From positions 413,477-477,476 of the forward strand of contig NZ_CVQP01000005.1 in assembly GCF_001040705.1 (NCBI RefSeq): a stretch of 64,000 nucleotides of DNA. Reading direction: 5' to 3'. The position numbers were made by a program, and so were the translations under genes. The stretch is from Rhodococcus sp. RD6.2. Its GTDB lineage: Bacteria > Actinomycetota > Actinomycetes > Mycobacteriales > Mycobacteriaceae. The notes beneath the pieces were generated by a model. That model was not told where the DNA came from, made no database searches, and saw only the letters and a program-made list of their open reading frames with translations. Below are positions 8,288-42,634 of this stretch, piece by piece (position 1 is the first letter of the stretch; every line of letters starts with the position of its first letter).

Positions 8288-9240
8288 CGCCGTCCGGTTC
8301 ACCGCTGCCGTCCCTGCGGTCCGGACAGCTACGCGACCCGGAACTGTCGGCGGCGTTGCGGACCCTGGAGTTGACGGTTCGTCGGCGTCTCGACGGCGTC
8401 CTGCACGGCGAGCACCTGGGGTTGATCCCGGGCCCCGGTACCGAACCGGGTGACGCACGCATGTATCAGCCGGGCGACGACGTCCGGCAGATGGACTGGT
8501 CGGTCACCGCCCGCACGACGCACCCGCACGTGCGGCAGTCCGTCGCGGACCGCGAGTTGGAGACGTGGCTGGTCGTCGACCTGTCCGCCAGCCTCGACTT
8601 CGGCACCACGGGTGCGGAGAAGCGGGACCTCGCGGTCGCGGCGGCGGCCGCGGTCACCCACCTCACCAGTGGGGGCGGCAACCGGATCGGCGCGATCGTC
8701 ACGACCGGCCACCGGACCGTGCGCATCCCGGCGCGTGGCGGCCGGATCCACTCCAGGGCGATGCTCCGTCAGATCGCGACCACGCCGCACGCGCCCGACG
8801 GGGTGCGCGGCGACCTCAAGGGTGCGATCGAGTCGCTACGGCGGCCGCAGCGACGTCGCGGACTCGCCGTGGTGATCAGTGACTTCCTCGGCCCGCTCGA
8901 CTGGGAACGGTCCCTCCGGGCCGTGTCCGGCCGCCACGACCTGCTCGGCGTCGAGGTGCTCGATCCGCGCGACCTCGAACTGCCGGACCTCGGTGACGTG
9001 GTCCTGCACGACCCCGAGACGGGCCGAACCCGCGAGTTCACAACGACTCCGCGGCTGCGGGCCGATTTCGCCACGGCCGCGCAGGCGCACCGGGTGGACG
9101 TCGAGCAGGCGTTGCGTCGGTGCGGTGCACCGGTACTCGGCCTGCGCACCGACCGTGACTGGATCGCGGACGTCGTGCGCTTCGTCGCGGCCCGCAGACA
9201 CAGCTATGGTTCCCGGGTGAATCGAGCGGCCCGCCAGTGA
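8284..9240 (+). CDS. DUF58 domain protein (Rv1480-like)
   Basis: A 318-residue protein with the DUF58 signature [18 protein letters not shown] and a following VWA-like fold that starts at [12 protein letters not shown]. The D-x-S-x-S pattern (DLSAS) suggests a metal-binding VWA site. It has no signal peptide and no membrane segment. It overlaps moxR by four bases and the downstream VWA gene by four bases, so the three are one translationally coupled unit. In other bacteria this trio works as a chaperone or insertion module; the substrate here is unknown, though the ripA neighbour suggests envelope enzymes. Confidence 0.93.
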
Positions 9241-10217
9241 GTCTGACCCAGTTCGCGTCACCCGGGTGGTTGGCGTTCCTCCTCGTCGTCGCCGCACTCG
9301 CCGCCGCCTATGTGCTCGCGCAGCGCCGGCGGCAGCGCAACATGCTCCGGTTCTCGAATCTGGAGTTGCTGGAGAAGGTGGCGCCCACGCGACCGGGTCG
9401 GCTTCGGCACCTGCCGACAGCCTTGGTTCTCGTGGGGTTGATGCTGCTGACGGTGGCGCTCGCCGGTCCGACGTCGGACAAGAAGGTTCCGCGCAACCGG
9501 GCGACGGTGATGCTGGTGATCGACGTGTCACTGTCGATGAAGTCCACCGACGTCGCGCCGACCCGGCTCGCGGCCGCGCAGGAAGCCGCGAAGCAGTTCG
9601 CGGACGGGCTCACCCCCGGCATCAACCTCGGCCTGGTCGCCTTCGCGGGCACCGCGTCCGTCCTCGTCTCGCCGACCGTCAACCGCGAGGAGACGAAGGC
9701 CGCGATCGATCACCTCACCCTCGCCGAGCGGACCGCGACCGGTGAGGCGATCTTCACCTCACTGCAGTCGATCGAGACGCTCGGCGCCGTCCTCGGTGGC
9801 GGCGATCAGGTTCCGCCCGCGCGGATCGTGTTGCTGTCCGACGGCAAGCAGACGGTTCCGGACAGCCCGGACGACGCCCGCGGCGGCTACACGGCAGCGA
9901 GTGAGGCGAAGGAGCGGGGCGTCCCCATCTCGACGATCTCGTTCGGCACCTCGTACGGCACCGTCGACATCGGCGACGATCGGATCGCCGTGCCAGTAGA
10001 CGATCCGTCGCTGCGTGAGATCGCGAATCTGTCCGGTGGCTCCTTCTTCACCGCGTCGAGCCTCGAGGAACTCAACAAGGTGTACGACACGCTCGAGGAG
10101 CAGATCGGGTTCGAGATCACCCGCGGTGACGCGAGCCGGGCGTGGCTGGTTCTCGGTGTCCTCTTCACCGCTGCCGGAATGGCCGCTGCACTGGTTCTGC
10201 GCCAACGCCTGCCGTGA
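9237..10217 (+). CDS. VWA domain membrane protein, BatA-like (Rv1481-like)
   Basis: A 326-residue protein with a TM segment near the N-terminus (about residues 10-26), a second at about 60-77, a VWA domain and a C-terminal TM segment (about 302-320). The MIDAS motif DVSLSMKS and the later acidic residue in LLSDGKQT are intact, so metal-dependent ligand binding is expected. The topology BatA-TM-VWA-TM is typical of MoxR partners. It starts inside the DUF58 stop (GTGA overlap) and ends 62 bases before fabG1. Confidence 0.93.
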
Positions 10218-10267
10218 CCCAGTGGCGCCTGACAGAATGTGCCTCCGGCTGACCCTTACCCAACAGA

Positions 10268-11002
<735 letters not shown>

Positions 11003-11055
11003 CCGCCTCGAACCTTCTCCCACACCACGACTTACATCTCCAGAGGAGCACAACC

Positions 11056-11889
11056 ATGGGCGGACTGCTCGAAGGCAAGACAATTCTCGTGACGGGCATC
11101 ATCACCGATGCCTCCATCGCGTTCCACACCGCGAAGGTCGCCCAGCAGCAGGGTGCCAAGGTGATCATCACCGGCATCCCGGAGCGGCTGCGACTGATCG
11201 ACCGGATCGCTCAGCGTCTCCCGGAGCCGGTGCCGGCGGCGATCCCCCTGGACGTGACCGACGAGGAGAGCCTCGGTGCGCTCGCCGACAAGGTCCGTGA
11301 GTTGGCCCCCGAGGGTCTCGACGGCGTCGTCCACTCGATCGCCTTCGCGCCCAAGACTCTGATGGGTCCCGATGCCGTGCCGTTCCTCGACGGTCCCGGA
11401 CCGGACGTTGCCAAGGCGTTCGAGATCTCCGCGTGGAGCTACGCCTCGCTCGCGCGCGCCGTGCTTCCCGTCATGAACGAGCGCGGCTCGATCGTCGGGA
11501 TGGACTTCGATCCGCGCACCGCGATGCCGGACTACAACTGGATGGGCGTCGCCAAGGCCGCGCTCGAGTCCGTGAACCGGTACGTGGCACGGGAAGTGGG
11601 CTACGCCAAGAAGATCCGGTCGAACCTGGTTGCGGCGGGCCCGATCAAGACGCTCGCGGCGAAGGCGATCTCGGGCACTGCGACGGACGACGCCAAGAAG
11701 CTGAACATGCTGAACGACTACTGGGACGGCGCATCGCCCATCGGCTGGAACGTCGACGATCCGGGCGTCGTGGGTACCAGCGTGTGCGCGGTGCTGTCGG
11801 ACTTCCTGCCCGCCACCACCGGCTCGATCATCTACGTCGACGGCGGAGCCAGCCACAACACGTGGTTCCCCGAGAACTTCATGGGCTGA
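11056..11889 (+). CDS. inhA: enoyl-ACP reductase InhA
   Basis: NADH-dependent enoyl-ACP reductase of FAS-II, 277 residues (about 8 more than M. tuberculosis InhA). The Gly-rich loop [12 protein letters not shown], Tyr160 and Lys167 in [13 protein letters not shown] (the Tyr158/Lys165 pair of InhA), and the [12 protein letters not shown] loop are present. Ser94 (VVHSIAF), the site altered in some isoniazid-resistant M. tuberculosis, is the wild-type residue here. The ATG at 11056 follows AGAGGAG with good spacing. It ends four bases before the ferrochelatase GTG, so the two are likely coupled. Confidence 0.97.
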
Positions 11890-11893
11890 CACG

Positions 11894-12946
11894 GTGTACG
11901 ACGCCCTCCTGCTGCTGTCCTTCGGCGGACCCGAAAAGCCCGCCGACGTGCGACCGTTCCTCGAGAACGTCACCCGCGGCAGGGGGGTGCCACCGGAACG
12001 CCTGGACGAGGTGGTCGAGCACTACCTGCACTTCGGTGGGGTCTCGCCGATCAATCGCCTCAATCGCGACATCATCGCCGCGATCGAGGGTGAATTCTCT
12101 TCTGCGGGAATCGAACTGCCAGTGTACTTCGGCAATCGCAACTGGCATCCGATGGTCGGGGACACCGTCGCTCGCATGCGCGACGACGGTGTCCGTTCGG
12201 CCCTGGTGTTCCCGACGTCCGCGTGGGGTGGCTACTCGGGGTGCAGGCAGTACCACGAGGACGTCACCCGGGCGCGGGCTGCGGTCGACGGGGCGCCGGA
12301 CCTGACGAAACTGCGTCAGTACTACGACCATCCGTTGATGGTCGCTGCGTTCGCGGACGCGATCACCGCGGCCCGCAGCGAGTTGCCGGAGTCGCAGCGT
12401 GACGGTGCGCGCCTGGTGTTCACCGCGCACTCGGTGCCGGTCGCGGCGGACGCGACGGGAGGTCCGCGCGCCGAGGGAGGCGGACTTTACAGCCGTCAGG
12501 TCGCCGAGGCCGCGCGGTTGTGCGCGGCGGCGGTCGGCGCCGCGGACCACGACCTGGTGTGGCAGTCGCGGTCCGGGCCGCCGCAGGTTCCGTGGCTCGA
12601 ACCCGACATCTGCGACCACCTCGATGCGGTCGCCGCGGCCGGGGCTAGCGCGGTGATCGTGTGCCCGATCGGATTCGTCTCGGACCACCTCGAGGTGATC
12701 TGGGATCTCGACACCGAGGCCCGGGACCGGGCAGCTGAGTTGGGGCTCGGGTTCGCGCGCGCGGGAACACCCGGCACCGATCCGCGATTCGCGGCGATGG
12801 TGGCCGAGCTGGTCGCCGAACGCGTCGACGGGGTCCCCGCGCGCAGGCTCGGCACCGAACCGTTGTACGGCGTCGGAACGAACGGCAACCTGTGTGCGCC
12901 CGACTGCTGTGTGCCACCGGCACGGCCGACGCGCAGGCCGAGCTGA
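11894..12946 (+). CDS. hemH: ferrochelatase (coproporphyrin III type)
   Basis: A 350-residue ferrochelatase that inserts iron into the porphyrin. Actinobacterial members use coproporphyrin III (CpfC), which is known family biology. Visible are the N-terminal [11 protein letters not shown], the metal-site His in [10 protein letters not shown], the substrate run [16 protein letters not shown] and the acidic motif [13 protein letters not shown]. The C-terminus GNLCAPDCC carries three Cys residues of the kind that bind the [2Fe-2S] cluster in mycobacterial ferrochelatase. The GTG start lies four bases after the inhA stop. The gene is in the mycolate operon, and the window also encodes heme degradation and uptake at 58.9-62.5 kb. 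Confidence 0.95.
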
Positions 12947-13024
12947 CGACACGCCCTGGTTTCGGGCGCCGCGGCGGGGCAGGATGGAACCTGTCGTAGT
13001 CGCTCCCACCGAGAGGAGTCGCCG

Positions 13025-31300: not shown

Positions 31301-31319
31301 AGCTCTCGGGAGGGCGGCA

Positions 31320-31904
31320 GTGGAACCGAGTAGGACGGTGTCGCCCACCGAGAGGTCCTCGGGCCGAATCCGCCTGCGGCCGGTGCTGGTCGCGGTCGGA
31401 CTGCTCGCGGCCGTGACCGGTGCGGTGGTGGTCCCACCGATGCTGGCCCGCTCGACCGCCGACCAGATCGACCGTCTGTCCGCGCAGGAGATGACCGAGG
31501 AGTCGGCTCCGCCGGAGGAGGCCGAGCTCGACTTCCTCGACACGTCCGCCTCGAGTCCGGCGGGACTGGCGGCACTGGCCGCCGCCTACACGCAGGAGGG
31601 CAAGCCGTACCGCTGGGGCGGAACCGGCCCCGACGAGTGGGACTGTTCGGGCCTGGTGCAGTGGGCATTCGGGCAGGCAGGCGTGGTCCTGCCCAGGGTG
31701 AGTGAGGACCAGGCGTTGTTCGGTGAACCCATCCGGGTGGAGGAGATGGCGCCGGGGGACGTGATCACCTTCCGTGACGCGGCCGACCACGTCGGCATCT
31801 ACGCGGGAGACGGGCAGGTGTTCAACGCCTACGACGAGGATGTCCCGATCGGTCTGACCGAGCTCGCCGAACTGCCGCCGATCCACAACGTGCAGCGCTT
31901 CTGA
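31320..31904 (+). CDS. small NlpC/P60 endopeptidase
   Basis: A 194-residue protein with a signal/anchor segment (about 19-41, RPVLVAVGLLAAVTGAVVV), a short linker and a C-terminal NlpC/P60 domain from about residue 80. The catalytic Cys is in WDCSGLVQWAF and the His in ADHVGIYAGDG, so it should be active in peptidoglycan hydrolysis. The GTG at 31320 has GGGAGGGCGG upstream. It sits 19 bases after meaB with no obvious functional tie. It lacks the coiled coil of the RipA-like protein at 5489. Confidence 0.9.
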   Translation: MEPSRTVSPTERSSGRIRLRPVLVAVGLLAAVTGAVVVPPMLARSTADQIDRLSAQEMTEESAPPEEAELDFLDTSASSPAGLAALAAAYTQEGKPYRWGGTGPDEWDCSGLVQWAFGQAGVVLPRVSEDQALFGEPIRVEEMAPGDVITFRDAADHVGIYAGDGQVFNAYDEDVPIGLTELAELPPIHNVQRF

Positions 31905-31921
31905 AGCGAAGGGCCTGCGTG

Positions 31922-32710
31922 TCAGCGCTGCATGGCCGTTGCGACGAGATCGTGGCCGAGATCGAATCGGATGCCGTCGGGATTGGTCAGACCCGTTCCG
32001 GTGTACCAGGATTCGTCGGCCTCCGGATGTGGACCGACGAGTCCGACGCGCCCACGGCCGTACGGGGTGACGACGGCCGCGACCTCGTCGTTGGGGTAGC
32101 GCGCCAGCACCGTCGCGCCGACCGCGTCCCAGTCGTCGTGGGCGACGGCGAACGCCGTGCCGTCCTGGAAGTACATGTGCCGCTCCCGGTCTCGCCAGCT
32201 GACCGAGACGACGGTGTCGTCGGTGTCGTGGACCGTCGCGTCGTCGGTGCCGATGTACTGCCGTACCCGACCGGGGAACAGGCGGTAGCCGGGGTCGTCG
32301 CCCGCGAGGTAGGCGCCGAGGCAGAATCCGAGGTACGTGCCGCCGCCGGCGACGAAGTCACGCAGTTGGGGTGCGTAGTCCCGCGTGTGCCGCCATCCCC
32401 GGGCGAGGCTCCCGCCGCCGGGTTGCGCGTACGCGGCGGCCCCGGCGAGCGATTCGGGCGTCACGTCGACGTCCTCGTCCGGGCCGCAGTACACCGGGCG
32501 CAGTGGCGTCGGCGCGGAGGCGAGCAGGTCCGCCACCGATTCCGCGCACCCCGAACAGGTCGCGGGTCCGCGGTAGACGAGCGCGACCGGCCGGTCGTCG
32601 GTGTTGCCGACCAGACCGGGCACGGTCAGTGCCGCCGCGGCACCCGCCAGACCGAGGCCCGCCGCGCCGATCAGGACGCGGCGCCGCGTCACCGGCACTC
32701 GGGGCCTCAC
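31922..32710 (-). CDS. Tat-exported BPL_N (GATase-like) protein 1
   Basis: A 262-residue protein. TRRRVLIGAAGLGLAGAAAA at residues 8-27 is a twin-arginine signal. The rest is a BPL_N domain, a class-I glutamine-amidotransferase-like fold named from biotin-protein ligase: ALVYRGP, AYAQPGGGS, nucleophile Cys130 in GGTYLGFCLGAYLAG, and His228 and Glu230 in GPHPEAD. The triad is intact. The start is GTG 32710, overlapping the acyltransferase stop (GTGA); the frame is open to 33361 but upstream it shadows that gene. It is the last gene of the Pls-like operon. Substrate and activity are unknown. Confidence 0.85.
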   Translation of the reverse strand: MRPRVPVTRRRVLIGAAGLGLAGAAAALTVPGLVGNTDDRPVALVYRGPATCSGCAESVADLLASAPTPLRPVYCGPDEDVDVTPESLAGAAAYAQPGGGSLARGWRHTRDYAPQLRDFVAGGGTYLGFCLGAYLAGDDPGYRLFPGRVRQYIGTDDATVHDTDDTVVSVSWRDRERHMYFQDGTAFAVAHDDWDAVGATVLARYPNDEVAAVVTPYGRGRVGLVGPHPEADESWYTGTGLTNPDGIRFDLGHDLVATAMQR

Positions 32711-33924
32711 GCGCGTGCGACGCGGGTCTCGACGGCCCGGCGGACGCGGCTGGTCACGGAGGTGACCAGACCCTCGAGCGGGCCGCGTCCCGCGGTCGCC
32801 CGCCACGCGAGCGCCAACGCACAGATCACCAGCACTTGCCGCAGATACCCCTCCGTCGGGCCGTACAGGTCGAAGTCGGAGTTGATGAACATGATGTGGC
32901 CAACGTAGACCGTGAGCGACATCGTTCCCACCGCGACCAGGGGTGCTGTGACGACGCGCACCGTTCCGGCCACGACCGGCCGGGTGATCTGGAACAGCAT
33001 CAAACAGAGACCGAGGACGAGCAGCGAACTGCCGACAGTGCTCGCCAGGTCCAGCGGAGTTCCGGTGTGCGGGCCGTTGACGGCCAGCCACCACCAGGTG
33101 TCGGTGGGAACGGTGCCGTCCGAGCCGAACGTGAGGATCTCCTCGATCGTGTCGGGATCCGAGACGGCCTCGATCCGGCTCAACCCCTCGAACGGGTGCA
33201 GGAACATCCACGACACGGTCGCCGAGAGTGACACGAGCAGCGCGCCGACGCCGACGAGCCAGGCGGTGACCCGAATCGAGGAGAGGTCGAGTCGGCCGAC
33301 CACCATGCCCACGACCACATAGGTCATCCACACGAAGGCCGGGAATTCGCCGGTGAAGCACAGGTTGGCAAGCGACTGGAGCGGCTCGACCAGCACCGTC
33401 TCCCAGGACACCTGCCGGGTGAACGGTGACGGCAGGTGGGGGCGTACGAGCTGGCTGAGCACCGGCGTGAGCAGGGCGGACACGAGGGCCAGTACGGCCA
33501 GCGTGCGAGTTCCCAGGTACACCAGCGGGACAGCGAGGAGGAACATGACGGCGTAGTAGGGCAGGATCACCACCCCGTAGTCGATCTCGGTGTATCCCAA
33601 CGACAATCCGATCACCGCGAGCAACAGTGCGCGGGCGGCGAGCGAGGCGGCGGTCCCGAGGGACTGTCGTCCACGCGTGAGTCGGCGCCGACCGGACAGG
33701 AACGCGATCGCGACACCGGCCAGCAACGCGAACATCGCCGAGGCGTGCCCGGCCGACACCGTGTACGACAGCGTGGCGCGCCCCTCCACGTCGTAGTCGT
33801 TGAGGGAGTGCACGGCGATCATGCCGAACACGGCCAGCCCGCGCGCGAGGTCGATTCCGCTGAGGCGAATCCGTCGCCGCTGCGGCGGCGTGGCGGCCAC
33901 GGGTACGGCAGTTTCGGTGGTCAT
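32707..33924 (-). CDS. polytopic acyltransferase, HGSNAT/DUF1624-DUF418 type
   Basis: A 405-residue integral membrane protein with about ten TM segments. The N-terminal run RLSGIDLARGLAVFGMIAVHS is typical of the heparan-alpha-glucosaminide acetyltransferase/DUF1624/DUF418 group; the His in MIAVHSL corresponds to its conserved His. Family members move acyl groups from acyl-CoA across the membrane to an amino or hydroxyl group. It starts one base after the stop of BPL_N 2 and overlaps BPL_N 1, so it is translated with them. A natural acceptor would be an amine of the Pls-like product, but that is inference. Confidence 0.87.
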   Translation of the reverse strand: MTTETAVPVAATPPQRRRIRLSGIDLARGLAVFGMIAVHSLNDYDVEGRATLSYTVSAGHASAMFALLAGVAIAFLSGRRRLTRGRQSLGTAASLAARALLLAVIGLSLGYTEIDYGVVILPYYAVMFLLAVPLVYLGTRTLAVLALVSALLTPVLSQLVRPHLPSPFTRQVSWETVLVEPLQSLANLCFTGEFPAFVWMTYVVVGMVVGRLDLSSIRVTAWLVGVGALLVSLSATVSWMFLHPFEGLSRIEAVSDPDTIEEILTFGSDGTVPTDTWWWLAVNGPHTGTPLDLASTVGSSLLVLGLCLMLFQITRPVVAGTVRVVTAPLVAVGTMSLTVYVGHIMFINSDFDLYGPTEGYLRQVLVICALALAWRATAGRGPLEGLVTSVTSRVRRAVETRVARA

Positions 33925-33925
33925 G

Positions 33926-34609
33926 TCAGCTCATCACCGCATCGATCAGGTCGAGGCCGGCGGCGGTGCCGACGTCGGTGGGGGTGGACAGGCCGGAGTC
34001 GGCGAACCACGCGGCGTCCGCCTCGGGATGGGGGCCGACGACGCCGACACGGCCCGCGCCGAATCGCGCGGTGAGTGCGGCGACCTCCCCATTGGCGTAC
34101 GCCGCGAGGACATACATGCCGGGGGTGAAGTGGTGCGGCAGCTCGAATGTCGGCCCGTCCTGGAAGTACATCGGCTGAGGGCGTCCCCGCCACCGCACGT
34201 CCACGACGCGGGCCTCGGTGCCGGGGACCTCGGAGCGGGGTGTCGCGATGTACTGATCGGTGTCGCCGGGGAGCAGATCGAAGCCGGGAGTGGAGCCTGC
34301 GAGGTACCCGCCGAGGCAGAACCCGAGGTATCGGCCACCGCCGCGGACGTAGTCCCGGAGGACGTCACGGTGCCTGCGCATGCGACGCCAGGCCGGGAGG
34401 AGCTCGTCGCCGCCGGGCTGCGCGTACACGGTCGCGCACCCCAGAACCTCCGGGGTGAGACGGAGATGCTCCCGCGGGCCGACGTAGTGCACGTCGAAGT
34501 TCCAGCGGCTTCGTCCGAGCAGGGCCGCCACCGATTCGGCACTGCCCGGCAGGGTGGCTCCGCGGCCGCGGTAGACGAGTGCCAGCGGGCGCGGTGGCGA
34601 CGACCTCAT
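33926..34609 (-). CDS. cytosolic BPL_N (GATase-like) protein 2
   Basis: A 227-residue protein consisting only of a BPL_N domain, with no signal peptide or TM segment, so it is likely cytosolic. ALVYRGRGATLPGSAES, VYAQPGGDELL, Cys98 in GRYLGFCLGGYLAG, and His194 and Glu196 in GPHPEADAAW form an intact Cys-His-Glu triad. Its ATG overlaps the Pls-like stop (ATGA, 34606-34609), and it ends one base before the acyltransferase start. It is clearly paralogous to BPL_N 1 and 3. Role unknown; the GATase-like fold could serve as an amidase, ligase or transferase. Confidence 0.85.
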   Translation of the reverse strand: MRSSPPRPLALVYRGRGATLPGSAESVAALLGRSRWNFDVHYVGPREHLRLTPEVLGCATVYAQPGGDELLPAWRRMRRHRDVLRDYVRGGGRYLGFCLGGYLAGSTPGFDLLPGDTDQYIATPRSEVPGTEARVVDVRWRGRPQPMYFQDGPTFELPHHFTPGMYVLAAYANGEVAALTARFGAGRVGVVGPHPEADAAWFADSGLSTPTDVGTAAGLDLIDAVMS

Positions 34610-37600
34610 GTGCGAACCGCCTGGGCCGGAACACCTTCCCAGCGGGTGCCCGCGGGAAGTTCGTCGCCCTTCATCAGCAGCGAGAGGGCCGCGAGTTCGG
34701 CGTGGTCACCCACGACGGAGTCGTAGAGGACGACGGCGCGGGTGCCGACGGTGGAGGCGGCGCCGACGGTGACCGTCGACATCTTCATGACGCGATCCTC
34801 GAACAGGTGGGTCTGCAACGACACACCGGCACCGATTGCGGCGTCGTCGCCCACCTGAACCAGATCGAATTCGGTGAGATAGGTCGTACCGATCCAGACG
34901 CGCCTGCCCATTCCGGCGCCGAACCAGCGCAGGATCATCGGCAGGTAGGGTGTGCCGGTCAACTGGTTGAGCAGCACCGGGACGGCGGCAGATTCGTACA
35001 TGCCGGTGGCGAACTCGGATCGGCGGACGAACTTGGCCCACAGCGGCTCCACCCGCGGCCGGTAGGTGCCGACGAGGTTCTTCTTCACCGCGGCGGAGAA
35101 CAGGACGACTCCGAGTGCGGTCGCGAGCGCCAGGAACGGCGCGGTCAGGACGGTCCAGAGCAGGGTGCTGCTGCGCGCAGTCAGCGACAGACCCAGCAGG
35201 TAGAAGTACAGGCTGACGCCGATCACCGTGGGTGGCAGCACGATCCGGAAGAACTCGATCCACCAGCGATGGGCGACCACGCCCCGATCGGGTGTGAACG
35301 TCTCCGCCTCGTCGTACTCGCCACTGTCCTGACGAACAGGCAGGTGGAACGCGGGGTTACCGAGCCACGACGTGTCCGGCGGCACTCCGTCGGCGGGTGG
35401 CACGGTCAGCACCCCGACGAGTGAGCCGTCACCGGTGCGCATGCCGCTGGGAAGAACCGCCGCATTGCCGACGAACGCCCGGGTGCCGACCGCGGTCGGG
35501 GCGAACATCATTCGGCCGTTGCAGAAGGCACTGCCGCCGAGGCTCGCCATGTCGGCGACGAAGCTCTCCTGACCGATGGTGAGCAGGTCGGGGTCGATGT
35601 GCGACACGGTCGAGACCTCCGCGCCGCGCCCGACCCGGGCGCCGAGCGCGCGCAGCCACGGCACGGTGTAGAGGGTGGCGTACAGCGTGTTCGTGTACAG
35701 CAGGCTCATCTCGAGCAGCTTGTCGGTGACCCATTTCCGGACCCCGAGTACGGATGCTTCGGGGAAGGTACCGACCGGCAGCGCGGGCAGGATCAGCTTC
35801 TTCCCGAGCAGGACCACCGCGCAGACGCTGGCGACATAGACGGCACCCGACACCAGCGTCGCGAGCAGAGACGCGATCATCCCGAACTCGAGCAGGACCG
35901 CCCACACCAGCACCAGGCTCGGCACGATGGTGGCGATGGCGAGCGCTTCCAGCGCCACGACCCCGACGGCGGTCAGCAGCAGTAGCTTCGGGCCCCACCC
36001 GGCCGGCCGGGGCTGCGCCGCCATGGATTCGATACGTGCGTCGAGGGCCGGGACGCGCTGCGGCGGTGATCCCGCCCATCGGGTCCCCGGTGGCAACGCG
36101 ACGCCCTCGGTGAGCACGGACTGGTCACCGAGCATCGTGCCCTCGCCGACGGAACTGCCCGCTTCGAGAACGCTGTTGGAGGCGACGTAGGCGCCCGCAC
36201 CGATGACGATCGGGGCCACGATCACCTCGCGCCCGACCACCCGCCACGGCCGGACATCGGTGTTGGTGCCGACGGACGCGCCGTCACCGATGTCGACCAG
36301 CGCCGGGAACGAGATCGTCGACGTTCCGATGTGGGTGTCGCGGCCGACCCGAGCGCCGAGCGCGCGCAGGAAGGAAGCCATCAGAGGCGAACCGCTCAAC
36401 ACCGGCATCGGGGCGAGCAGCATGAGGTGATCGACCATCCACAGGCGCAGATAGGTTGTGCCCCACAGTCGATAGCGGCCGGGGGTGATCCCGGCCGACA
36501 GCGGCCTGATCGCGAGGACCGGCAGCACCCAGCGGACCACGAGATAGGACGGAACGGTGGCGATCAACAGGTCGACGAGGGCGTCGAACGACGGTTGGCC
36601 GTGGTGAGCGTGGTAGACGACGGACACGGGGATCGTCACCACCAGCAGAACCAGCAGGACGAACAGTCCCTGGACGGCGCCTGCGCTGCGGATGGTGGCG
36701 TTTCCGGTCGGCTCGTCGCCCGGTTCGTCCACCAGCGGAGGAGGGGGAGTGGGCGGCCCGCCCGAGCCGTACGAAAGGTCGTGGGGGAGCGCGCCTGCCA
36801 TCGCCCGGATGGTCGGGTTGGCGTACACGTCCCTGATCCCGGCGGTGGGGTGCATGCCGCTCTCGCGCAGTCGGGTCACCAACTGTGCGGCCGCGAGGGA
36901 GTGTCCACCGAGTTCGGTGAAGAAGTCCGCTTCCACCGAGACGTCGTCGACGGGAAGTCCGAGCAGCGTCGCCCAGAGCTGCCGTAGGTCGTTCTCGACA
37001 TCGCCGTGGGCCGCGACGACCGGTCCGGCAGGGCCGGACAGTCGTCGACCCGACGGCGCGGGCAACTTGGGCCGATCGACCTTGCCGCTCGGCATCATCG
37101 GAAGTTCGTTCACCACGTCGAGGAAGGTCGGGACCATGTAGTCGGGCAGGCGCCGGCCCGTCTCGTCGGCGAGACGGGCGAACAGTGCATCGATCGTGTC
37201 CGGGGAGGCGCCCGTTCCCGGCATCAGCACCACCCACGCGGCGAGTTGTTCCACGTCGGCGACCGTCACGAGTGACACAACTGCGCTGGCAACGCCGTCG
37301 TCGACGAGGAGGACGCTCTCGATCTCGCCGAGGTCGACGCGGTGACCTCGGATCTTGACCTCGCTGTCGGCGCGGCCGAGGTATTCGATCTCCCCCCACT
37401 CGGTCCATCGTGCGAGGTCGCCGGTGCGGTAGAGGCGGCCGTCGATACCGCTCTCGGGGACGTGGAGGAACTTGTCGGCGGTGAGATCGGGGCGGCCGAC
37501 GTAACCGCGCGCGACGCCGGGACCACCGATGCACAACTCGCCGACCTCGCCGTCCGGCACGACGCGCCTGCCCTCGTCGAGGATCACGCAGGAGTACGTC

Positions 37601-38598
37601 GGAAGCGGCACACCGATGGTGACCGGCCGACCCGGTACGAGCTCGCACCAGGTGGCGGTTACGGTCGCCTCGGTCGGTCCGTAGGTGTTCAGGATCCGGC
37701 GACCGGGCCGGCCCCAGCGCTCGACCAGTTCGCGGGGACACGCCTCGCCGCCGACGAGGATGTTGCGCAGCAGCGGCAGCTCTCGCGGGATCGTGGCGAG
37801 CAGGGTGGGGACGCAGTAGAGGACCGTGACGCGGTTGTACTCGAGGAAGTCGGCGAGTTCGCCGCCGAGCCGCCCCGCCCCGGTCGGGCCGGGGACGAGG
37901 GTCGCGCCAACGGCCCACGTCGGCCAGATCTCCTCGATCGAGAAGTCGAACGAGATCGTCATGCCCTGGTAGACGCGGTCGGTGGGCTGCACGTCGTAGA
38001 CGGTGGGCACGATGTCGAGGAAGTTGCAGATGCTGGACTGCGCGACCTCGACACCCTTGGGGCGTCCGGTCGAACCGGACGTGTAGATGATGTACGCGGC
38101 CGGATCCCGGTGCATCACCTCGAAGTTCGGTCGTGTCACGGCATTCTGTGCGATGAGTTCGGCTTCGCCGTCGATCTCGGTCCAGGGGACGCCGAGCGGT
38201 GCGAGCAGGCCGGCGAACGACGTGCTGGTGATCACGAGGTCGACGCCCGCGTCGCTGGTGATGTAGTCGACGCGGTCGGCGGGGGAGGCGGGATCGATCG
38301 GGACGAACGCGGCGCCGGCTTTGAGCACGGCGAGCAGCGCGACATACGTGTGGGGGGATCGTTCCAGCAGGATGCCGATGCGTGCACCGACGTCGATGCC
38401 GACGCTGATCAGGTGGTGGGCCAGCTGATTGGCCCGCCACTCGATGTCGGCGTACGTGAAGGTATTGCCCTCGCAGAGCAGAGCGATCGAATCCGGGGTC
38501 CGGTCGGCCGTCGCCTCGAACACGTGTTCAAGGCGACGCCTGGTCCCGGCGACGGCGGCGGACCTGCCGGTCGCCCGGGTCGGGTACGGGCCAGACAT
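34606..38598 (-). CDS. membrane NRPS of the epsilon-poly-lysine synthetase (Pls) type
   Basis: A 1330-residue enzyme with the Pls architecture. Residues 20-515 are an adenylation domain (TSGSTG 173-178, NTYGPTE 304-310, YRTGDLAR 390-397, Lys506 in PSGKVDRPKL). A carrier domain has Ser567 (LGGHSLAAA). Then come six TM segments (about 643-662, 675-697, 872-892, 895-930, 1117-1139, 1146-1170) alternating with three left-handed beta-helix domains (745-845, 983-1085, 1225-1325). There is no ordinary condensation domain; in Pls the three tandem domains join residues. The specificity residues read D-F-E-Y-L-G-T-V-T-K, compatible with a basic amino acid. The ATG at 38598 follows GAGGATCC. It leads the operon. 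Confidence 0.92.
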   Translation of the reverse strand: MSGPYPTRATGRSAAVAGTRRRLEHVFEATADRTPDSIALLCEGNTFTYADIEWRANQLAHHLISVGIDVGARIGILLERSPHTYVALLAVLKAGAAFVPIDPASPADRVDYITSDAGVDLVITSTSFAGLLAPLGVPWTEIDGEAELIAQNAVTRPNFEVMHRDPAAYIIYTSGSTGRPKGVEVAQSSICNFLDIVPTVYDVQPTDRVYQGMTISFDFSIEEIWPTWAVGATLVPGPTGAGRLGGELADFLEYNRVTVLYCVPTLLATIPRELPLLRNILVGGEACPRELVERWGRPGRRILNTYGPTEATVTATWCELVPGRPVTIGVPLPTYSCVILDEGRRVVPDGEVGELCIGGPGVARGYVGRPDLTADKFLHVPESGIDGRLYRTGDLARWTEWGEIEYLGRADSEVKIRGHRVDLGEIESVLLVDDGVASAVVSLVTVADVEQLAAWVVLMPGTGASPDTIDALFARLADETGRRLPDYMVPTFLDVVNELPMMPSGKVDRPKLPAPSGRRLSGPAGPVVAAHGDVENDLRQLWATLLGLPVDDVSVEADFFTELGGHSLAAAQLVTRLRESGMHPTAGIRDVYANPTIRAMAGALPHDLSYGSGGPPTPPPPLVDEPGDEPTGNATIRSAGAVQGLFVLLVLLVVTIPVSVVYHAHHGQPSFDALVDLLIATVPSYLVVRWVLPVLAIRPLSAGITPGRYRLWGTTYLRLWMVDHLMLLAPMPVLSGSPLMASFLRALGARVGRDTHIGTSTISFPALVDIGDGASVGTNTDVRPWRVVGREVIVAPIVIGAGAYVASNSVLEAGSSVGEGTMLGDQSVLTEGVALPPGTRWAGSPPQRVPALDARIESMAAQPRPAGWGPKLLLLTAVGVVALEALAIATIVPSLVLVWAVLLEFGMIASLLATLVSGAVYVASVCAVVLLGKKLILPALPVGTFPEASVLGVRKWVTDKLLEMSLLYTNTLYATLYTVPWLRALGARVGRGAEVSTVSHIDPDLLTIGQESFVADMASLGGSAFCNGRMMFAPTAVGTRAFVGNAAVLPSGMRTGDGSLVGVLTVPPADGVPPDTSWLGNPAFHLPVRQDSGEYDEAETFTPDRGVVAHRWWIEFFRIVLPPTVIGVSLYFYLLGLSLTARSSTLLWTVLTAPFLALATALGVVLFSAAVKKNLVGTYRPRVEPLWAKFVRRSEFATGMYESAAVPVLLNQLTGTPYLPMILRWFGAGMGRRVWIGTTYLTEFDLVQVGDDAAIGAGVSLQTHLFEDRVMKMSTVTVGAASTVGTRAVVLYDSVVGDHAELAALSLLMKGDELPAGTRWEGVPAQAVRT

Positions 38599-38624
38599 CC
38601 GGATCCTCACGGTAGCGAACAAGA

Positions 38625-38670
38625 GTCAGTCAACGTGTAGCTAACTGGGGGTTGGGCGGCGGTCAGTCAA
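38625..38670. promoter_or_regulatory. direct repeat GTCAGTCAA upstream of the Pls-like operon
   Basis: GTCAGTCAA occurs at 38625-38633 and 38662-38670, 37 bases apart, 27 and 64 bases upstream of the Pls-like start. On the operon strand both read TTGACTGAC, so one may serve as a -35. The repeat could be the binding site of the adjacent LuxR-type regulator. The 377-base gap (38599-38975) between the divergent genes holds this repeat, the palindrome at 38881-38896 and no ORF I would call. Confidence 0.45.
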
Positions 38671-38880
38671 GCACGTTCCGACATGAAGGACGAATGTCCA
38701 CATGATGGGAAGGTGCTGGGGTGATGTCCTCGATGTCGGGGTGGGTTCGGGGCGGTTCTCGGATCGTTCCTGCAGGAGTAGCGGCTGGGAGAGTGGTTCG
38801 GGAGTCATCCCGGTCAGGTGCAAATCTCCGTGTGGCTGCCGAAGGAATCACCCGCGAATTCACCCACTCGCCGACGCGGA

Positions 38881-38896
38881 CGTGAGCGCACTCACG
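38881..38896. promoter_or_regulatory. CRP/GlxR-type palindrome in the divergent promoter
   Basis: CGTGAGCGCACTCACG is a perfect palindrome with the GTGA-N6-TCAC core of CRP-family sites. It lies about 38 bases upstream of a -10-like TAGGCT (38934-38939) in front of the LAL regulator gene. It may tie this region to cAMP control. The assignment is from motif only. Confidence 0.45.
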
Positions 38897-38975
38897 ATCC
38901 GGGGGTTGGCGGGGTGCGACCTGCAGATATCGGTAGGCTATTTCGGACATGTCGGACGGTTCGAGGGGGTGGGGG

Positions 38976-41435
38976 ATGACTGATGTCCGGGTTTCGGCAC
39001 GTCGGTTACGCCTGCTTCGCAGGCTGGACGAGTCGCCCCTGACGGTGGTGTGGGGGCCGGCCGGATACGGCAAGACCGAGCTCGTGGAATCGTGGCTTGC
39101 GCTCCGCGCCGACGTCGTCGCATGTCGAATCGCGGCTCCGGGCCCGGCGACGGGACCGGACGCGTACTGGGCTGCCGTGGCATCTGCATCCGCATCCGCG
39201 TCGGCGGGGGGTGCGGACGTGATGGTCGTTCTCGACCTTCCGGAGAAAGGCCTCCTCGCGAACATCGGTGTGAGGCTGTGGGATCTGCAGGTCCGCACCC
39301 CGACCTGTCGATTCGTCCTGACCACGCGGGACGGGTCGGTGTTCGACGACCGGTTCCCGTCGTCCGGAGTGTCGGTGGTGATGCCCGCAGAACTGGAGTA
39401 CACCCTCGACGAGGTCGCCGAGTTGCTCGCCGATCGGCAGGCCTCGTCTTGGAGGGCTGCGCGCGACGTGTGGCTCATGACGGGAGGGCACCCCGCGCTG
39501 GTTGCCTTGGCGGAGAACGTGCTCCGCATCTATGGAAAGGATCTCGAGCTCGAACGAGAGCGCGCCTGCCTCGCAGTGGAGGTGCAGGTCGACCGGTACG
39601 TCGACGCCAATCTCCTCGAGCCTCTTCCGCAGAGTCTGCGGGCGGCCGCCCGGACGGTGGCGGCGGTCAGGCGGGTGACCGCGACGGTGGTGACGATGCT
39701 CCGCGTCGACGACGCGGAGAAGGCGATCGCGGCGCTCGAATGCGCCGGGCTGCTGTACCGAATGCCGCCGTCACCCGAGCGGTACCACGTTTTTCCCGAC
39801 GCGATTCGCAGATCGCTGCGCCGTGGAGCGATGCGTGAGGGAATGCAGCCGCCGCCCGAGGTGTCGGCCGCCCTCGCGCGGTGGTACGAGACGGTCGGCG
39901 ATCCCGTCGAAGCGTTGCGTCACGCCACCGAGGGGCAGGACTGGGATCTGGTCGTGGAGGTGCTGGCGGCGCACTGGGTCGAGATCACCGCCACCAGATT
40001 CGGCGTGCTGTTCCGTGCACTCTGTGGTTTGCCCGAGCATGTACTCCGATCACGGCCCGCGATGCTGTATGCGCGTGAACTGGCGGTGCGGATCTCCTCC
40101 GACCTCCGTCCCCTGCCGCGATCACTGCCCGAGGTGATTTCGCCCGGCGCGGACATCGACGGGCAGGACTCGTTCGACGTCGCGCTCGCACCCGGCGTGC
40201 TTCGTTCGACACTGATGCGCTGGATCGGTGACTACGACGAGGCCGTTCGAAACCACGCCGAACTCGTCGACCTCGCAACCCGAATCGAATCCGAGGGCGC
40301 AGATCAGGGCGCGCGGCCCGACCTGGCTCCGGTGTGGACGCATCTCGGTTTGACCAGTGAGTACCGCGGCGACCACCAGAGGGCCGCGGATCTGTTCGAG
40401 CGCGCCGTGATCGGTTGTCCTCGTGGTCCGGGCGACTTCGCGGCGCGACAGGCTGCCGGGCAACTGGCCCTCCAGCAGGCGGTACTCGGTGAGGGTCGCC
40501 GCGCACAGCGCTGGATCGAACAGGAGTCCACCTTCGGCAGCGTCGCCGGATGGCTCGGGACCACGATCGAACTGCCTGCGATCACCGCACGGGTGATCGT
40601 CGCGCTCGACCGACTGGACGTCGCTGCCGCCGAACAGGTTCTGACGACGCTGCCGGAGTTGACCGGCAACATCGAGAACTGGGCGTTCGTGGTGTACGCG
40701 AGGGCCCAGTACGAGCTGATGCGCGGTCGACCCGAGGCAGGCCTCGACCGCGTACGACGGCATCGGGCGGAGTTCGGGAAGTGGCTCGGCCCAGCCGCAT
40801 TCGCCCGCCCGCTGCTCGACGCGGCGGAGATGGACCTGAACACGGCGCTGGGCGCGGGCTCCGATGTGCTGGAACGGGCCGAACTCGTCAGCGGGCCGCT
40901 GCACCCGTTGGTCCGGTTGTCGACGGCTCGTGCGGCGTTGCTGACCGGGAACACCTCGACCGCAGCGAAACACGCAACCGAACTGACTCGCCGACGGGGG
41001 ATCTACACGAGGGTGCGGCTCGAGGCGTTCCTGATCGAGTCGATGGTGTCGCTCCACGCGGGTGAACGAGACGCTGCCCGCGTCGCATGGAACCGTGCGG
41101 TGGCGCTGTCGGAGGACACCGGACTGGCGCGGCCGTTCACGACGGTGCCGGCCGAGATGCGCAGCACACTGTCCGAGTTCGGCACGCCACCTGTCGATTT
41201 CGGAGCGCAGGAATGGGCACCGTACCCACTGCCGGCGCCCGCAGTGCACCTCACCGATCGGGAGCTCGCGGTGCTGCACGGACTGAGTCGCGGCCACCCC
41301 GTCGTCGACATTGCGAAATCCCTGTTCGTCTCACCCAACACGATCAAAACGCAGCTCCGGGGCCTGTACCGCAAGCTGGGGGTCCACTCTCGGGGCGATG
41401 CGGTCCGCGAGGCGCGGCGGCGAGGGTTGGTCTAG
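38976..41435 (+). CDS. LAL-type LuxR transcriptional regulator
   Basis: An 819-residue regulator with an N-terminal ATPase (P-loop GPAGYGKT, residues 27-34), a helical repeat-rich middle part (about 300-740, MalT/TPR-like) and a C-terminal LuxR HTH (LTDRELAVLHGLSRG, then FVSPNTIKTQLRGLYRKLGV). The class acts as ATP-dependent activators. The ATG at 38976 is used because of GGGGGTGGGGG upstream; an in-frame ATG at 38949, nine bases after a -10-like TAGGCT, is an alternative. It is divergent from the Pls-like operon and convergent with BPL_N 3, and probably controls both. Confidence 0.92.
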   Translation: MTDVRVSARRLRLLRRLDESPLTVVWGPAGYGKTELVESWLALRADVVACRIAAPGPATGPDAYWAAVASASASASAGGADVMVVLDLPEKGLLANIGVRLWDLQVRTPTCRFVLTTRDGSVFDDRFPSSGVSVVMPAELEYTLDEVAELLADRQASSWRAARDVWLMTGGHPALVALAENVLRIYGKDLELERERACLAVEVQVDRYVDANLLEPLPQSLRAAARTVAAVRRVTATVVTMLRVDDAEKAIAALECAGLLYRMPPSPERYHVFPDAIRRSLRRGAMREGMQPPPEVSAALARWYETVGDPVEALRHATEGQDWDLVVEVLAAHWVEITATRFGVLFRALCGLPEHVLRSRPAMLYARELAVRISSDLRPLPRSLPEVISPGADIDGQDSFDVALAPGVLRSTLMRWIGDYDEAVRNHAELVDLATRIESEGADQGARPDLAPVWTHLGLTSEYRGDHQRAADLFERAVIGCPRGPGDFAARQAAGQLALQQAVLGEGRRAQRWIEQESTFGSVAGWLGTTIELPAITARVIVALDRLDVAAAEQVLTTLPELTGNIENWAFVVYARAQYELMRGRPEAGLDRVRRHRAEFGKWLGPAAFARPLLDAAEMDLNTALGAGSDVLERAELVSGPLHPLVRLSTARAALLTGNTSTAAKHATELTRRRGIYTRVRLEAFLIESMVSLHAGERDAARVAWNRAVALSEDTGLARPFTTVPAEMRSTLSEFGTPPVDFGAQEWAPYPLPAPAVHLTDRELAVLHGLSRGHPVVDIAKSLFVSPNTIKTQLRGLYRKLGVHSRGDAVREARRRGLV

Positions 41436-42562
41436 GAGGCAGGCGCGGCTGCTCCGGCTCCCATGCGAATGACGAAGTGCCGCACGAACGGGACCTCGGC
41501 GACCAGGCCGAACGGCCACGGCAGCACCGGCGGCTCGGGTGCGGTTGCCGCAGGCGTGGCGGGAGCGTCCGGCGGTGCAGGAACGGCTGGTGCAGCCGGA
41601 ACGGCCGGTGCAGCCGGAACGGCTGGAGGAGCAGGCGCGTTCGACTGCGCGATGGTCGGGGTCTGGATCGCGGCGCCCGGCACGGGCATCGCGGAGGCGG
41701 ACGCGATCGCCGGTGGGAGTGGGAGCACGGGAAGCCCGGGGACGACGGGTGCCGGTGCCGGAACAGGGGACGCCGTCGGCGTCGGGACCCGCCCGGACGT
41801 GTTGCCCTGCACGGTCGTTTCGATCAGGTCGTACGCGAGGTGCGGGTTGACCGCACCGTCCGGTGACAGGCCATCGTCGACGAACCAGCTCCGGTCCGCC
41901 TCGATGTGGGGTCCGGTCACCCCGACTCGCCCCTTGCCGTGATCGACGGCGAGCGCGGCGATCTCGCCTCCCTCATAGGTGGCGAGGATCGTTGTGGAGT
42001 CGTCGGGCTCGATGTCGAACCCCGGCGGATCCTGGAAGTAGGTGGTGTACTCCTGGCCGCGCCACACCACCGTCGACCGAGCGGGATCCTCGTTCCACAC
42101 CGTCGCGCCGCGCTTGGCGCTGTACTGGTAGGTGTCGCCCGGCAGCAGGTCGTAGCCCGGGGTCGCCCCTGCGAGGTAGCCGCCGACGCAGAAGCCCAAA
42201 TAGTTTCCGCCGCCCGCGATCCAGTCCTCGAGCAGGTCGGCATACGGCCGCATCGCCTTCCACGCCGTGCTCAGGCTCGGTCCGCCCGGTTGCGCGAACA
42301 CGGTGGCTCGCGCCAGGGTGGCCGCGGTGATCGGGGTGTCGTTCGGGCCGACGTACTCGACACGGAACTTCGACGGCGAGTTCCGGAGAACGGTGGCAAC
42401 CGATTCGGCGGTACCGGGTACCGAAGCCGGACCGCGGTACACGAGCGCGAGTGGCTGCGCAGGCGCGGTCGGAACGGCGGCGTGCGCGGTCACCGCGGCC
42501 AGCGGGCCGAGCAGTGCGATCACGGCTGTCAGGACGATCAGAACCCGCCGGTGAGTGTGCAC
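41432..42562 (-). CDS. Sec-exported BPL_N (GATase-like) protein 3 with Pro/Ala tail
   Basis: A 376-residue protein with a Sec signal peptide (residues 5-29, ending VTAHA), a BPL_N domain (about 37-250) and a Pro/Ala-rich tail (about 255-345). The nucleophile is Cys125 in GNYLGFCVGGYLAG. The His/Glu pair is His219 and Glu221, but the motif is GPHIEAD rather than GPHPEAD. The start is GTG 42562. Its stop codon shares bases with the stop of the convergent LAL regulator (41432-41435). It is a paralogue of the two BPL_N proteins in the operon and is probably cell-surface or secreted. Confidence 0.85.
   Translation of the reverse strand: MHTHRRVLIVLTAVIALLGPLAAVTAHAAVPTAPAQPLALVYRGPASVPGTAESVATVLRNSPSKFRVEYVGPNDTPITAATLARATVFAQPGGPSLSTAWKAMRPYADLLEDWIAGGGNYLGFCVGGYLAGATPGYDLLPGDTYQYSAKRGATVWNEDPARSTVVWRGQEYTTYFQDPPGFDIEPDDSTTILATYEGGEIAALAVDHGKGRVGVTGPHIEADRSWFVDDGLSPDGAVNPHLAYDLIETTVQGNTSGRVPTPTASPVPAPAPVVPGLPVLPLPPAIASASAMPVPGAAIQTPTIAQSNAPAPPAVPAAPAVPAAPAVPAPPDAPATPAATAPEPPVLPWPFGLVAEVPFVRHFVIRMGAGAAAPAS
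41580..41626 (-). repeat. 18-bp tandem repeat in the BPL_N 3 tail
   Basis: Two 18-base units (41580-41597, 41598-41615) and a partial third encode P-A-A-P-A-V repeats of the Pro/Ala tail. The period is a multiple of three, so length variation would keep the frame. The tail looks like a cell-wall-spanning spacer. Confidence 0.65.
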
Positions 42563-42634
42563 CGCACCTCGATTCGTTGCCGATTCACCACCGCCGCCAC
42601 CATGCGACGATGCCCTGACAGTACAGCCGCGTGG

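What the first reader, a model, noticed from the sequence alone, without database searches (positions are those of the whole stretch)
31922..42562. Candidate new system: Pls-like membrane NRPS with three GATase-like (BPL_N) proteins, an acyltransferase and a LAL regulator
Seen: a 1330-residue Pls-architecture enzyme, a cytosolic BPL_N protein, a polytopic HGSNAT/DUF1624-like acyltransferase and a Tat-exported BPL_N protein form a chain with 4-nt overlap, 1-nt gap and 4-nt overlap. A divergent LuxR-LAL ATPase and a convergent Sec-exported BPL_N protein complete it. Known: Pls makes epsilon-poly-lysine by tandem beta-helix C domains, and HGSNAT acetylates an amine across a membrane. Inference: the locus makes a cationic homo- or oligo-amino-acid, trims or transfers it with the BPL_N proteins in two compartments, and acylates it. 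I know of no description of this combination.
Basis: partly seen in the sequence, partly recalled or inferred. Interest (0 to 1): 0.85.

Follow-up and report, generated by a model that had tools for sequence, protein, structure and literature searches.

The report
Polymer synthetase with GATase-like partner hydrolases
A soil bacterium carries a compact gene cassette that probably makes a short, positively charged amino-acid polymer, together with a little-studied enzyme family that probably cuts or releases that polymer.

Summary
A Pls/PosA-type membrane NRPS (34606-38622), a cytosolic BPL_N protein, a polytopic acyltransferase homologue and a Tat-type BPL_N protein form a tight chain; a Sec-type BPL_N and a LAL gene stand beside it. 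The block lies between meaB and a nucleoside hydrolase gene, which nearly touch in a same-genus genome without it. The partnership is not local: of 77 BPL_N loci kept from named genomes 69 carry a Pls, and 7 of the other 8 are contig ends; in a draw of 197 class genomes all 5 with BPL_N (the window's and 4 of one genus) have it beside a Pls. The linked synthetases share the pocket code DFEYxGTVTK (61 of 68 frames read), unlike poly-lysine synthetase (DAESIGTVVK); it points to diaminopropionate or diaminobutyrate. All 76 BPL_N proteins aligned keep Cys-His-Glu. An exported BPL_N and an exported M1 peptidase (the kind that degrades poly-lysine) never share a locus (0 of 71), though kinship leaves few independent contrasts. 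Best reading: a short-diamino-acid polymer cassette whose BPL_N proteins are polymer-processing hydrolases. The LAL gene is not core (3 of 77). Hydrolysis, acylation and monomer are inferred. New variant of a known kind.

The parts
34606..38622 (-). D: Pls/PosA-type single-module NRPS (A, PCP with Ser575 of GGHS, hexapeptide-type soluble domains between three TM pairs); code DFEYLGTVTK. Start may be the ATG at the ninth codon
33926..34609 (-). C: BPL_N protein without a signal, class I GATase-like, Cys98/His194/Glu196; 4-nt overlap with D
32707..33924 (-). B: polytopic HGSNAT_cat (PF07786) acyltransferase homologue; 1 nt after C
31922..32710 (-). A: BPL_N protein with a twin-arginine-type N terminus; 4-nt overlap with B
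41432..42562 (-). F: BPL_N protein with a Sec-type N terminus and a Pro/Ala-rich C-terminal tail
38949..41435 (+). E: LuxR/LAL regulator. Local accessory, not conserved with the system
31320..31904 (+). NlpC/P60 protein inside the same present/absent block; found in only one of the four other same-genus loci compared

Best explanation
The locus is a cassette for a short-side-chain cationic isopeptide homopolymer, most likely of 2,3-diaminopropionate or 2,4-diaminobutyrate. Shown by sequence: the synthetase family, its pocket code, a nearly constant BPL_N partner, intact Cys-His-Glu in all BPL_N copies aligned, and an old split between BPL_N forms with and without an export signal. Inferred: D adenylates the diamino acid, loads it on the PCP, and its membrane-embedded tandem domains polymerise and pass out the chain. 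C, translated with D, is a cysteine hydrolase acting on the chain or its carrier thioester on the cytosolic side. A and F are the same kind of hydrolase outside, cutting the released polymer for length control, self-protection or recycling, the job done by the M1 peptidase PldII in poly-lysine producers. B acylates free amines of the polymer at the membrane.
For: Pls/PosA family above cut-off, six TM segments in three pairs. Code: 68 frames were read in 65 of the 69 Pls loci; 61 are DFEYxGTVTK, 2 the same lacking the last letter, 2 are halves of one split gene, 1 is DFECLGTVTK, 2 belong to neighbouring enzymes (DAESIGTVVK in L115, DAQDFGLVDK in L124). PMC10522769 (sections 10 and 14 and passages) says PDAP/PDAB synthetases have Phe at position 2, poly-lysine synthetases Ala, and that Asp1 and Glu3 are conserved. 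BPL_N with Pls in 69 of 77 loci, 68 of them with Pls upstream on the same strand; all 5 of 197 class genomes with PF09825 have it beside one of 53 TIGR02353 matches. Cys98, His194, Glu196 in 76 of 76 aligned. Weak class I GATase kinship. Exported BPL_N without M1 32, M1 without exported BPL_N 23, both 0, neither 16 of 71 loci. Four of four poly-lysine-type loci read as own stretches (L055, L142, L144, L146) and L115 have an M1 homologue next to the Pls and, in the four, no BPL_N match (L115). pls and pldII also overlap by 4 nt (PMC4361855, passages); PldII lies outside the membrane and is called necessary for self-protection (PMC9223678, passages). Forms with and without a signal: 3 changes on the tree, shuffled mean about 36. 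Both PldA-type loci read (L143, L145) carry a B homologue, 32% and 34% identical.
Against: No activity was measured. The known Dap routes are not visible in the window's family: SbnB 0 of 10 genomes, ornithine cyclodeaminase 0 of 10. A Dab transaminase-family gene is present in 10 of 10, but one of these lacks the system, so it proves little. Five of 40 genomes show no SbnB or OCD match and no dat match over cut-off (G155, G158, G174, G175, G176). The M1/exported BPL_N exclusion rests on 2 to 4 independent contrasts and is not significant after allowing for kinship; 16 of 71 loci have neither within the stretch held, some of them short contigs. C has no signal whereas PldII is exterior, so C is not a simple stand-in. 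Export was called by a crude hydrophobicity threshold, which put both copies of L079 on the exported side. The GATase matches are weak: unrelated Pfam families reach similar E-values in single members and the next PDB hits are chance-like. No structure could be predicted.
Confidence: 0.55

Rival explanations
1. C is mainly a trans-acting thioesterase or proofreading enzyme: it frees stalled or mischarged chains from the PCP of D, which has no thioesterase domain; exported copies have drifted to another role.
For: No thioesterase domain in D. C is the constant partner, has no signal, and is coupled to D. PMC4668381 (parts 1 and 2 of 5 read) says the release step of PDAP synthetase is unknown.
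Against: Poly-lysine-type and PldA-type synthetases of the same architecture show no BPL_N match beside them (0 of 6 loci), so release does not in general need it. Exported copies keep the same triad.
Confidence: 0.2
2. BPL_N proteins are true glutamine amidotransferase subunits: they release ammonia for the diamino acid or to cap the polymer as an amide.
For: GATase-like Cys-His-Glu and weak GATase_3 and PDB glutamine amidotransferase matches.
Against: Many copies carry an export signal (41 of 117 non-lone copies), where glutamine and ATP-using partners are not expected. Among recurring neighbours I saw no partner synthetase other than Pls, but not all neighbour families were annotated.
Confidence: 0.1
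3. The polymer is gamma-poly-Dab rather than beta-poly-Dap.
For: The Dab-type synthetases, with dat beside them in S. celluloflavus (L143) and dat plus aspartate kinase in S. olivoreticuli (L145), have code DFECLSAVTK, sharing 7 of 10 letters with DFEYLGTVTK. Both also carry a B homologue. The window's genome has a dat-family gene and no SbnB or OCD match.
Against: The BPL_N-linked group is a separate clade from these, and no dat or ask lies beside D. S. noursei, kin of the PDAP producer S. albulus by recalled taxonomy, has only two Pls, a poly-lysine type and the BPL_N-linked DFEYVGTVTK one, which makes Dap attractive.
Confidence: 0.4
4. The genes are merely neighbours: BPL_N and acyltransferase serve unrelated roles.
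For: BPL_N genes without a matching Pls in the 16-20 kb around them exist (L050-L054), and one Nocardia has BPL_N apart from its Pls (L083, L183).
Against: 69 of 77 and 5 of 5 linkage, different genomic surroundings in different genera, linkage also in a bin named Ktedonobacteraceae (L182); the Nocardia genome still has a DFEYLGTVTK Pls.
Confidence: 0.05

Closest known systems
beta-poly-L-diaminopropionate synthetase (PDAPs, Streptomyces albulus PD-1)
   Same: Architecture (PMC4668381, parts 1 and 2); Phe at pocket position 2 (PMC10522769). Possibly the same enzyme group as the BPL_N-linked one of S. noursei (inference).
   Different: Its sequence and gene context could not be read here; no hydrolase partner is named in the parts of PMC4668381 that I read. 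Known Dap-route genes not found in the window's family.
epsilon-poly-L-lysine synthetase Pls with degradase PldII
   Same: Synthetase architecture; partner hydrolase with 4-nt overlap (PMC4361855, passages).
   Different: Code DAESIGTVVK; A domain 38-40% and terminal domain 30-33% identical to D; partner is an M1 peptidase, no BPL_N match.
gamma-poly-L-Dab synthetase PldA (dat, ask)
   Same: Closest outgroup: 52% A domain, 44-45% terminal domain. Both loci read carry a B homologue, 32 and 34% identical.
   Different: Code DFECLSAVTK; dat beside it in both loci, aspartate kinase shown in L145; no BPL_N match. That these two are PldA rests on code and dat/ask, as described in PMC8117764.
delta-poly-L-ornithine synthetase PosA
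   Same: Same synthetase family (PMC10522769).
   Different: Code DMEHNGTVSK (PMC10522769); its gene context was not examined here.
PF09825 BPL_N / class I glutamine amidotransferase-like proteins
   Same: Curated Pfam cut-off passed; Cys and His-x-Glu.
   Different: No biotin ligase domain found in A, C or F; paired with a polymer synthetase and partly exported.

Membership tests
Pls/PosA NRPS (TIGR02353) | score above curated cut-off | tested here: met
   555.7 against 423.1 bits
Pls/PosA NRPS (TIGR02353) | A + PCP, no classical C or TE domain; soluble domains between three TM pairs | tested here: met
Pls/PosA NRPS (TIGR02353) | Asp at code position 1 and Glu at position 3 | tested here: met
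   rule from PMC10522769
Pls/PosA NRPS (TIGR02353) | makes an isopeptide homopolymer | not testable with these tools
   needs enzyme assay
epsilon-poly-lysine synthetase | Ala at code position 2 and M1 degradase partner | tested here: not met
   Phe, and BPL_N instead of M1, in the window and the family loci
PDAP synthetase | Phe at code position 2 | tested here: met
PDAP synthetase | Dap supply (SbnB or ornithine cyclodeaminase type) in the genome | tested here: inconclusive
   0 of 10 genomes of the window's family; other Dap routes not excluded
gamma-poly-Dab synthetase PldA | dat and ask in the cluster | tested here: not met
   none among the genes annotated beside D; a dat-family gene only elsewhere, C1:177333
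BPL_N (PF09825) | curated Pfam cut-off | tested here: met
   for A, C, F; 76 of 76 aligned members match at E up to 5
Class I GATase-like | Cys in a GxCxG elbow and a later His-x-Glu | tested here: met
   76 of 76; that these form the catalytic triad is recalled
Class I GATase-like | glutaminase activity feeding a synthetase | not testable with these tools
   needs assay
HGSNAT_cat acyltransferases (PF07786) | curated Pfam cut-off | tested here: met
   39.9 against 22 bits
HGSNAT_cat acyltransferases (PF07786) | conserved catalytic His | tested here: inconclusive
   His39 and His286 in 35 of 35, His343 in 34 of 35 aligned; not mapped onto HGSNAT, no PDB match

The most novel reading that the evidence does not exclude
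BPL_N proteins are an unrecognised family of cysteine isopeptide (or thioester) hydrolases dedicated to one class of polycation synthetase, deployed on both sides of the membrane. The exported form is interchangeable with the M1 degradase of poly-lysine producers. With the acyltransferase the cassette makes a trimmed, acylated diamino-acid polymer not yet isolated, across Actinomycetes and perhaps reaching Chloroflexota.
Probability: 0.4. Interest if true: 0.78.

Novelty: new variant of a known kind. Interest (0 to 1): 0.62.

Why it matters
How Pls-type synthetases release chains, set their length and spare their producer is, as far as I could read, worked out to some extent only for poly-lysine. 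A partner enzyme family found with nearly every synthetase locus of the DFEYxGTVTK type seen here makes that testable in one knockout. It would give bacterial BPL_N proteins a function and a search key (BPL_N beside TIGR02353) for dozens of loci in named strains.

Tried and rejected
Rejected: lysine as monomer (code). Rejected: LAL as core part (3 of 77 loci). Not resolved: Dap or Dab. Literature searches (listings seen, and the papers named in the report) showed no described BPL_N partner of such synthetases; mostly matched an unrelated abbreviation, and figures and supplements (for example the gene-context figure of PMC8117764) could not be seen, so a prior depiction is not excluded. A search for OpuAC in the own genome was needless and is not used. 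In one search the window rows A and F were cut in the wrong frame; one search replaces it. Structure prediction was off, so no fold comparison was made. Rows dropped: the BPL_N alignment A4 holds 76 of 113 usable copies (110 from the named loci, plus 3 of the window); the acyltransferase alignment A5 holds 35 of 45; copies with a stop or too short were left out beforehand; seven stretches from genomes already present among the named loci were not counted twice in the 71.
Full report
Observation. D (34606-38622, -), C (33926-34609, -), B (32707-33924, -) and A (31922-32710, -) form a chain with ATGA overlap, 1-nt gap and GTGA overlap; E (38949-41435, +) is divergent from D, and F (41432-42562, -) converges on E. 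Pfam: three BPL_N, one HGSNAT_cat, one AMP-binding/PP-binding/Hexapep protein, one GerE protein with weak TPR matches. D is a Pls/PosA enzyme by TIGR02353 with three TM pairs.

A discrete block. On one side lie meaB and, before it, two genes that I read as mutA and mutB (recalled names; only meaB was scanned), on the other an inosine-uridine nucleoside hydrolase gene. Four other same-genus genomes carry the system at this site (L041-L044). A same-genus genome without a match, G021, has meaB ending at L167:7631 and the convergent hydrolase frame ending at 7653. The window's block, 31301-42634, is therefore present or absent as a unit; gain and loss cannot be told apart. It also holds an NlpC/P60 gene that one of the four shares. 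In genera g10, g16 and g18 the set lies in other surroundings, and one g16 genome has it twice. Named records put the window near Rhodococcus, nearest R. maanshanensis (Pls 82% identical).

Co-occurrence. Among 151 genomes of the family, 14 have a relative of C: the window's own, 8 whose 9 loci have D, C, B and at least one further BPL_N, and 5 with BPL_N but no matching Pls in the 16-20 kb taken; weak D hits in three of those are to another adenylating enzyme by score. A scan of one genome per species with the BPL_N alignment found 220 relatives and kept the best 80, 77 loci. 69 of 77 carry a Pls; in 68 it lies upstream on the same strand as a BPL_N gene, in L085 it is divergent. Of the 8 without, 7 begin within 1.5 kb of a contig end (L074, L100, L101, L103, L110, L125, L129). 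The eighth, L083 (Nocardia), has BPL_N apart from its Pls, yet its genome holds a DFEYLGTVTK Pls (L183). Six of these eight genomes were searched for Pls: five matched, four over cut-off, and G368 (L129) did not. The bin of L074, named Ktedonobacteraceae, has a DFECLGTVTK Pls divergent from a BPL_N gene (L182). An even draw of 197 genomes of the class, the window's included, gave PF09825 in 5 and TIGR02353 in 42 with 53 matches; all 5 BPL_N genomes have it beside a Pls, and for the other 48 matches no PF09825 match was reported at E up to 1e-4. The loci were picked by BPL_N, so the class draw is the fairer sample; but 4 of its 5 are from one genus and the fifth is the window's genome.

Which polymer. 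By alignment to D the code is D226 F227 E230 Y269 L289 G291 T313 V321 T322 K514, the same in 10 of 10 family members (the mapping to Stachelhaus positions follows a recalled GrsA frame, and it yields DAESIGTVVK, Ala at position 2, for the poly-lysine types). In 65 of the 69 Pls loci 68 frames were read: 61 DFEYxGTVTK, 2 the same without the last letter, 2 halves of a split gene, 1 DFECLGTVTK, 2 of neighbouring enzymes (L061, L066, L073 and L131 were not read). The poly-lysine types L055 (own genome), L142, L144 and L146 each have an M1 homologue next to the Pls and no BPL_N match. PldA-like DFECLSAVTK enzymes stand in L143 with dat and in L145 with dat and aspartate kinase, without BPL_N match. 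PMC10522769 (sections 10 and 14 and passages) links Phe at position 2 to PDAP/PDAB synthetases. PMC4668381 (parts 1 and 2 of 5, and passages) shows that PDAPs uses Dap. S. noursei A-2-1 has only two Pls at E up to 1e-30, the poly-lysine type and the BPL_N-linked one, so the latter is the likely PDAPs counterpart if S. noursei and S. albulus are as close as I recall; its open frame, 1422 codons, is shorter than the 4,338-bp PDAPs gene, which speaks against identity. Against Dap: SbnB over cut-off in 9 of 40 genomes, no match in 10 of 10 of the window's family; ornithine cyclodeaminase in 23 of 40, none in the same 10. For Dab: dat over cut-off in 27 of 40 and in those 10 of 10, one of which lacks the system. 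Five of 40 show none of these. The monomer is open.

The BPL_N proteins. 76 of 76 aligned copies keep Cys98, His194 and Glu196, as do 30 of 30 of an earlier set. Kinship to class I GATases is weak: GATase_3 in 11 of 76, best E 0.0023, among unrelated families at E down to 0.015; PDB 9xfs, a glutamine amidotransferase, E 0.025, aligned over the nucleophile elbow, then chance-like hits and HisH 1ka9 at 0.39. Copies without (76) and with (41) an export signal form nearly separate groups, 3 changes against a shuffled mean of about 36, so the division of labour is old. In 71 Pls loci (69 named plus L046 and L049) 32 have an exported BPL_N and no M1, 23 an M1 and no exported BPL_N, none both, 16 neither (one of the 32, L085, has only the exported copy). 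The M1 proteins are of two kinds. On the Pls tree the exchange needs at least 3 changes, but only 2 to 4 independent pairs exist, too few for significance. PldII overlaps pls by 4 nt (PMC4361855, passages), lies outside the membrane and is called necessary for self-protection (PMC9223678, passages; PMC8117764, section 5, says postulated). The parallel makes a polymer hydrolase the best guess for A and F. C, without signal and the constant partner, may act on the chain or its thioester.

The acyltransferase. B homologues are in 46 of 71 loci, in 31 of 32 with an exported BPL_N and in 9 of 23 with M1. D25, R28, H39 and H286 are invariant in 35 of 35 aligned. An independent hint: both PldA-type loci carry a B homologue, 32% identical in S. 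celluloflavus (L143:14128-15357, DUF418 and HGSNAT_cat by Pfam) and 34% in S. olivoreticuli (L145:13947-15077); the four poly-lysine-type loci show none. So the acyltransferase goes with short-diamino-acid polymers in two synthetase groups.

Verdict. A conserved variant of the isopeptide-polymer synthetase systems, with a partner family that I found in no paper listed or read. The family of the synthetase and the linkage are firm; the chemistry is inferred.

Noticed in passing
L055 (own genome C2:22001-42000), 7684-12979: Second Pls of the genome, poly-lysine-type code DAESIGTVVK, with an M1 peptidase gene (Pfam) at its 3' end: an ordinary poly-lysine-like pair.
   Followed up: partly
L062:9216-10010 and 18 other loci of the 77: A DDAH/arginine-deiminase-like gene (PF19420 in L062) matched in 19 of 77 loci, in L062 between Pls and BPL_N; 12 of the 19 are Micromonosporaceae by recalled taxonomy. 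Role unknown.
   Followed up: partly
L143:803-15357: S. celluloflavus locus of PldA type (DFECLSAVTK, dat, acyltransferase homologue) also has an M1 homologue about 5 kb upstream.
   Followed up: no
L102:11958-12812: PAS/GGDEF-like protein gene between the acyltransferase and the exported BPL_N gene in one of two copies of the system in Antrihabitans cavernicola; the other copy was not examined for it.
   Followed up: no
L182:677-6152: Bin named Ktedonobacteraceae (Chloroflexota) with DFECLGTVTK Pls divergent from a BPL_N gene: the partnership crosses phyla, unless the bin is contaminated.
   Followed up: partly
L050-L054: BPL_N genes without neighbouring Pls in two other genera of the family; L052's N terminus looks like a lipoprotein signal. 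Whether those genomes hold a matching Pls was not tested.
   Followed up: no
window 41432-41800: F carries a C-terminal Pro/Ala-rich tail of about 120 residues, also seen in L041; other exported copies were not examined for it.
   Followed up: no
L122:2740-9571: In Fodinicola feengrottensis the Pls, acyltransferase and one BPL_N match are split over several frames: decay or poor sequence.
   Followed up: no
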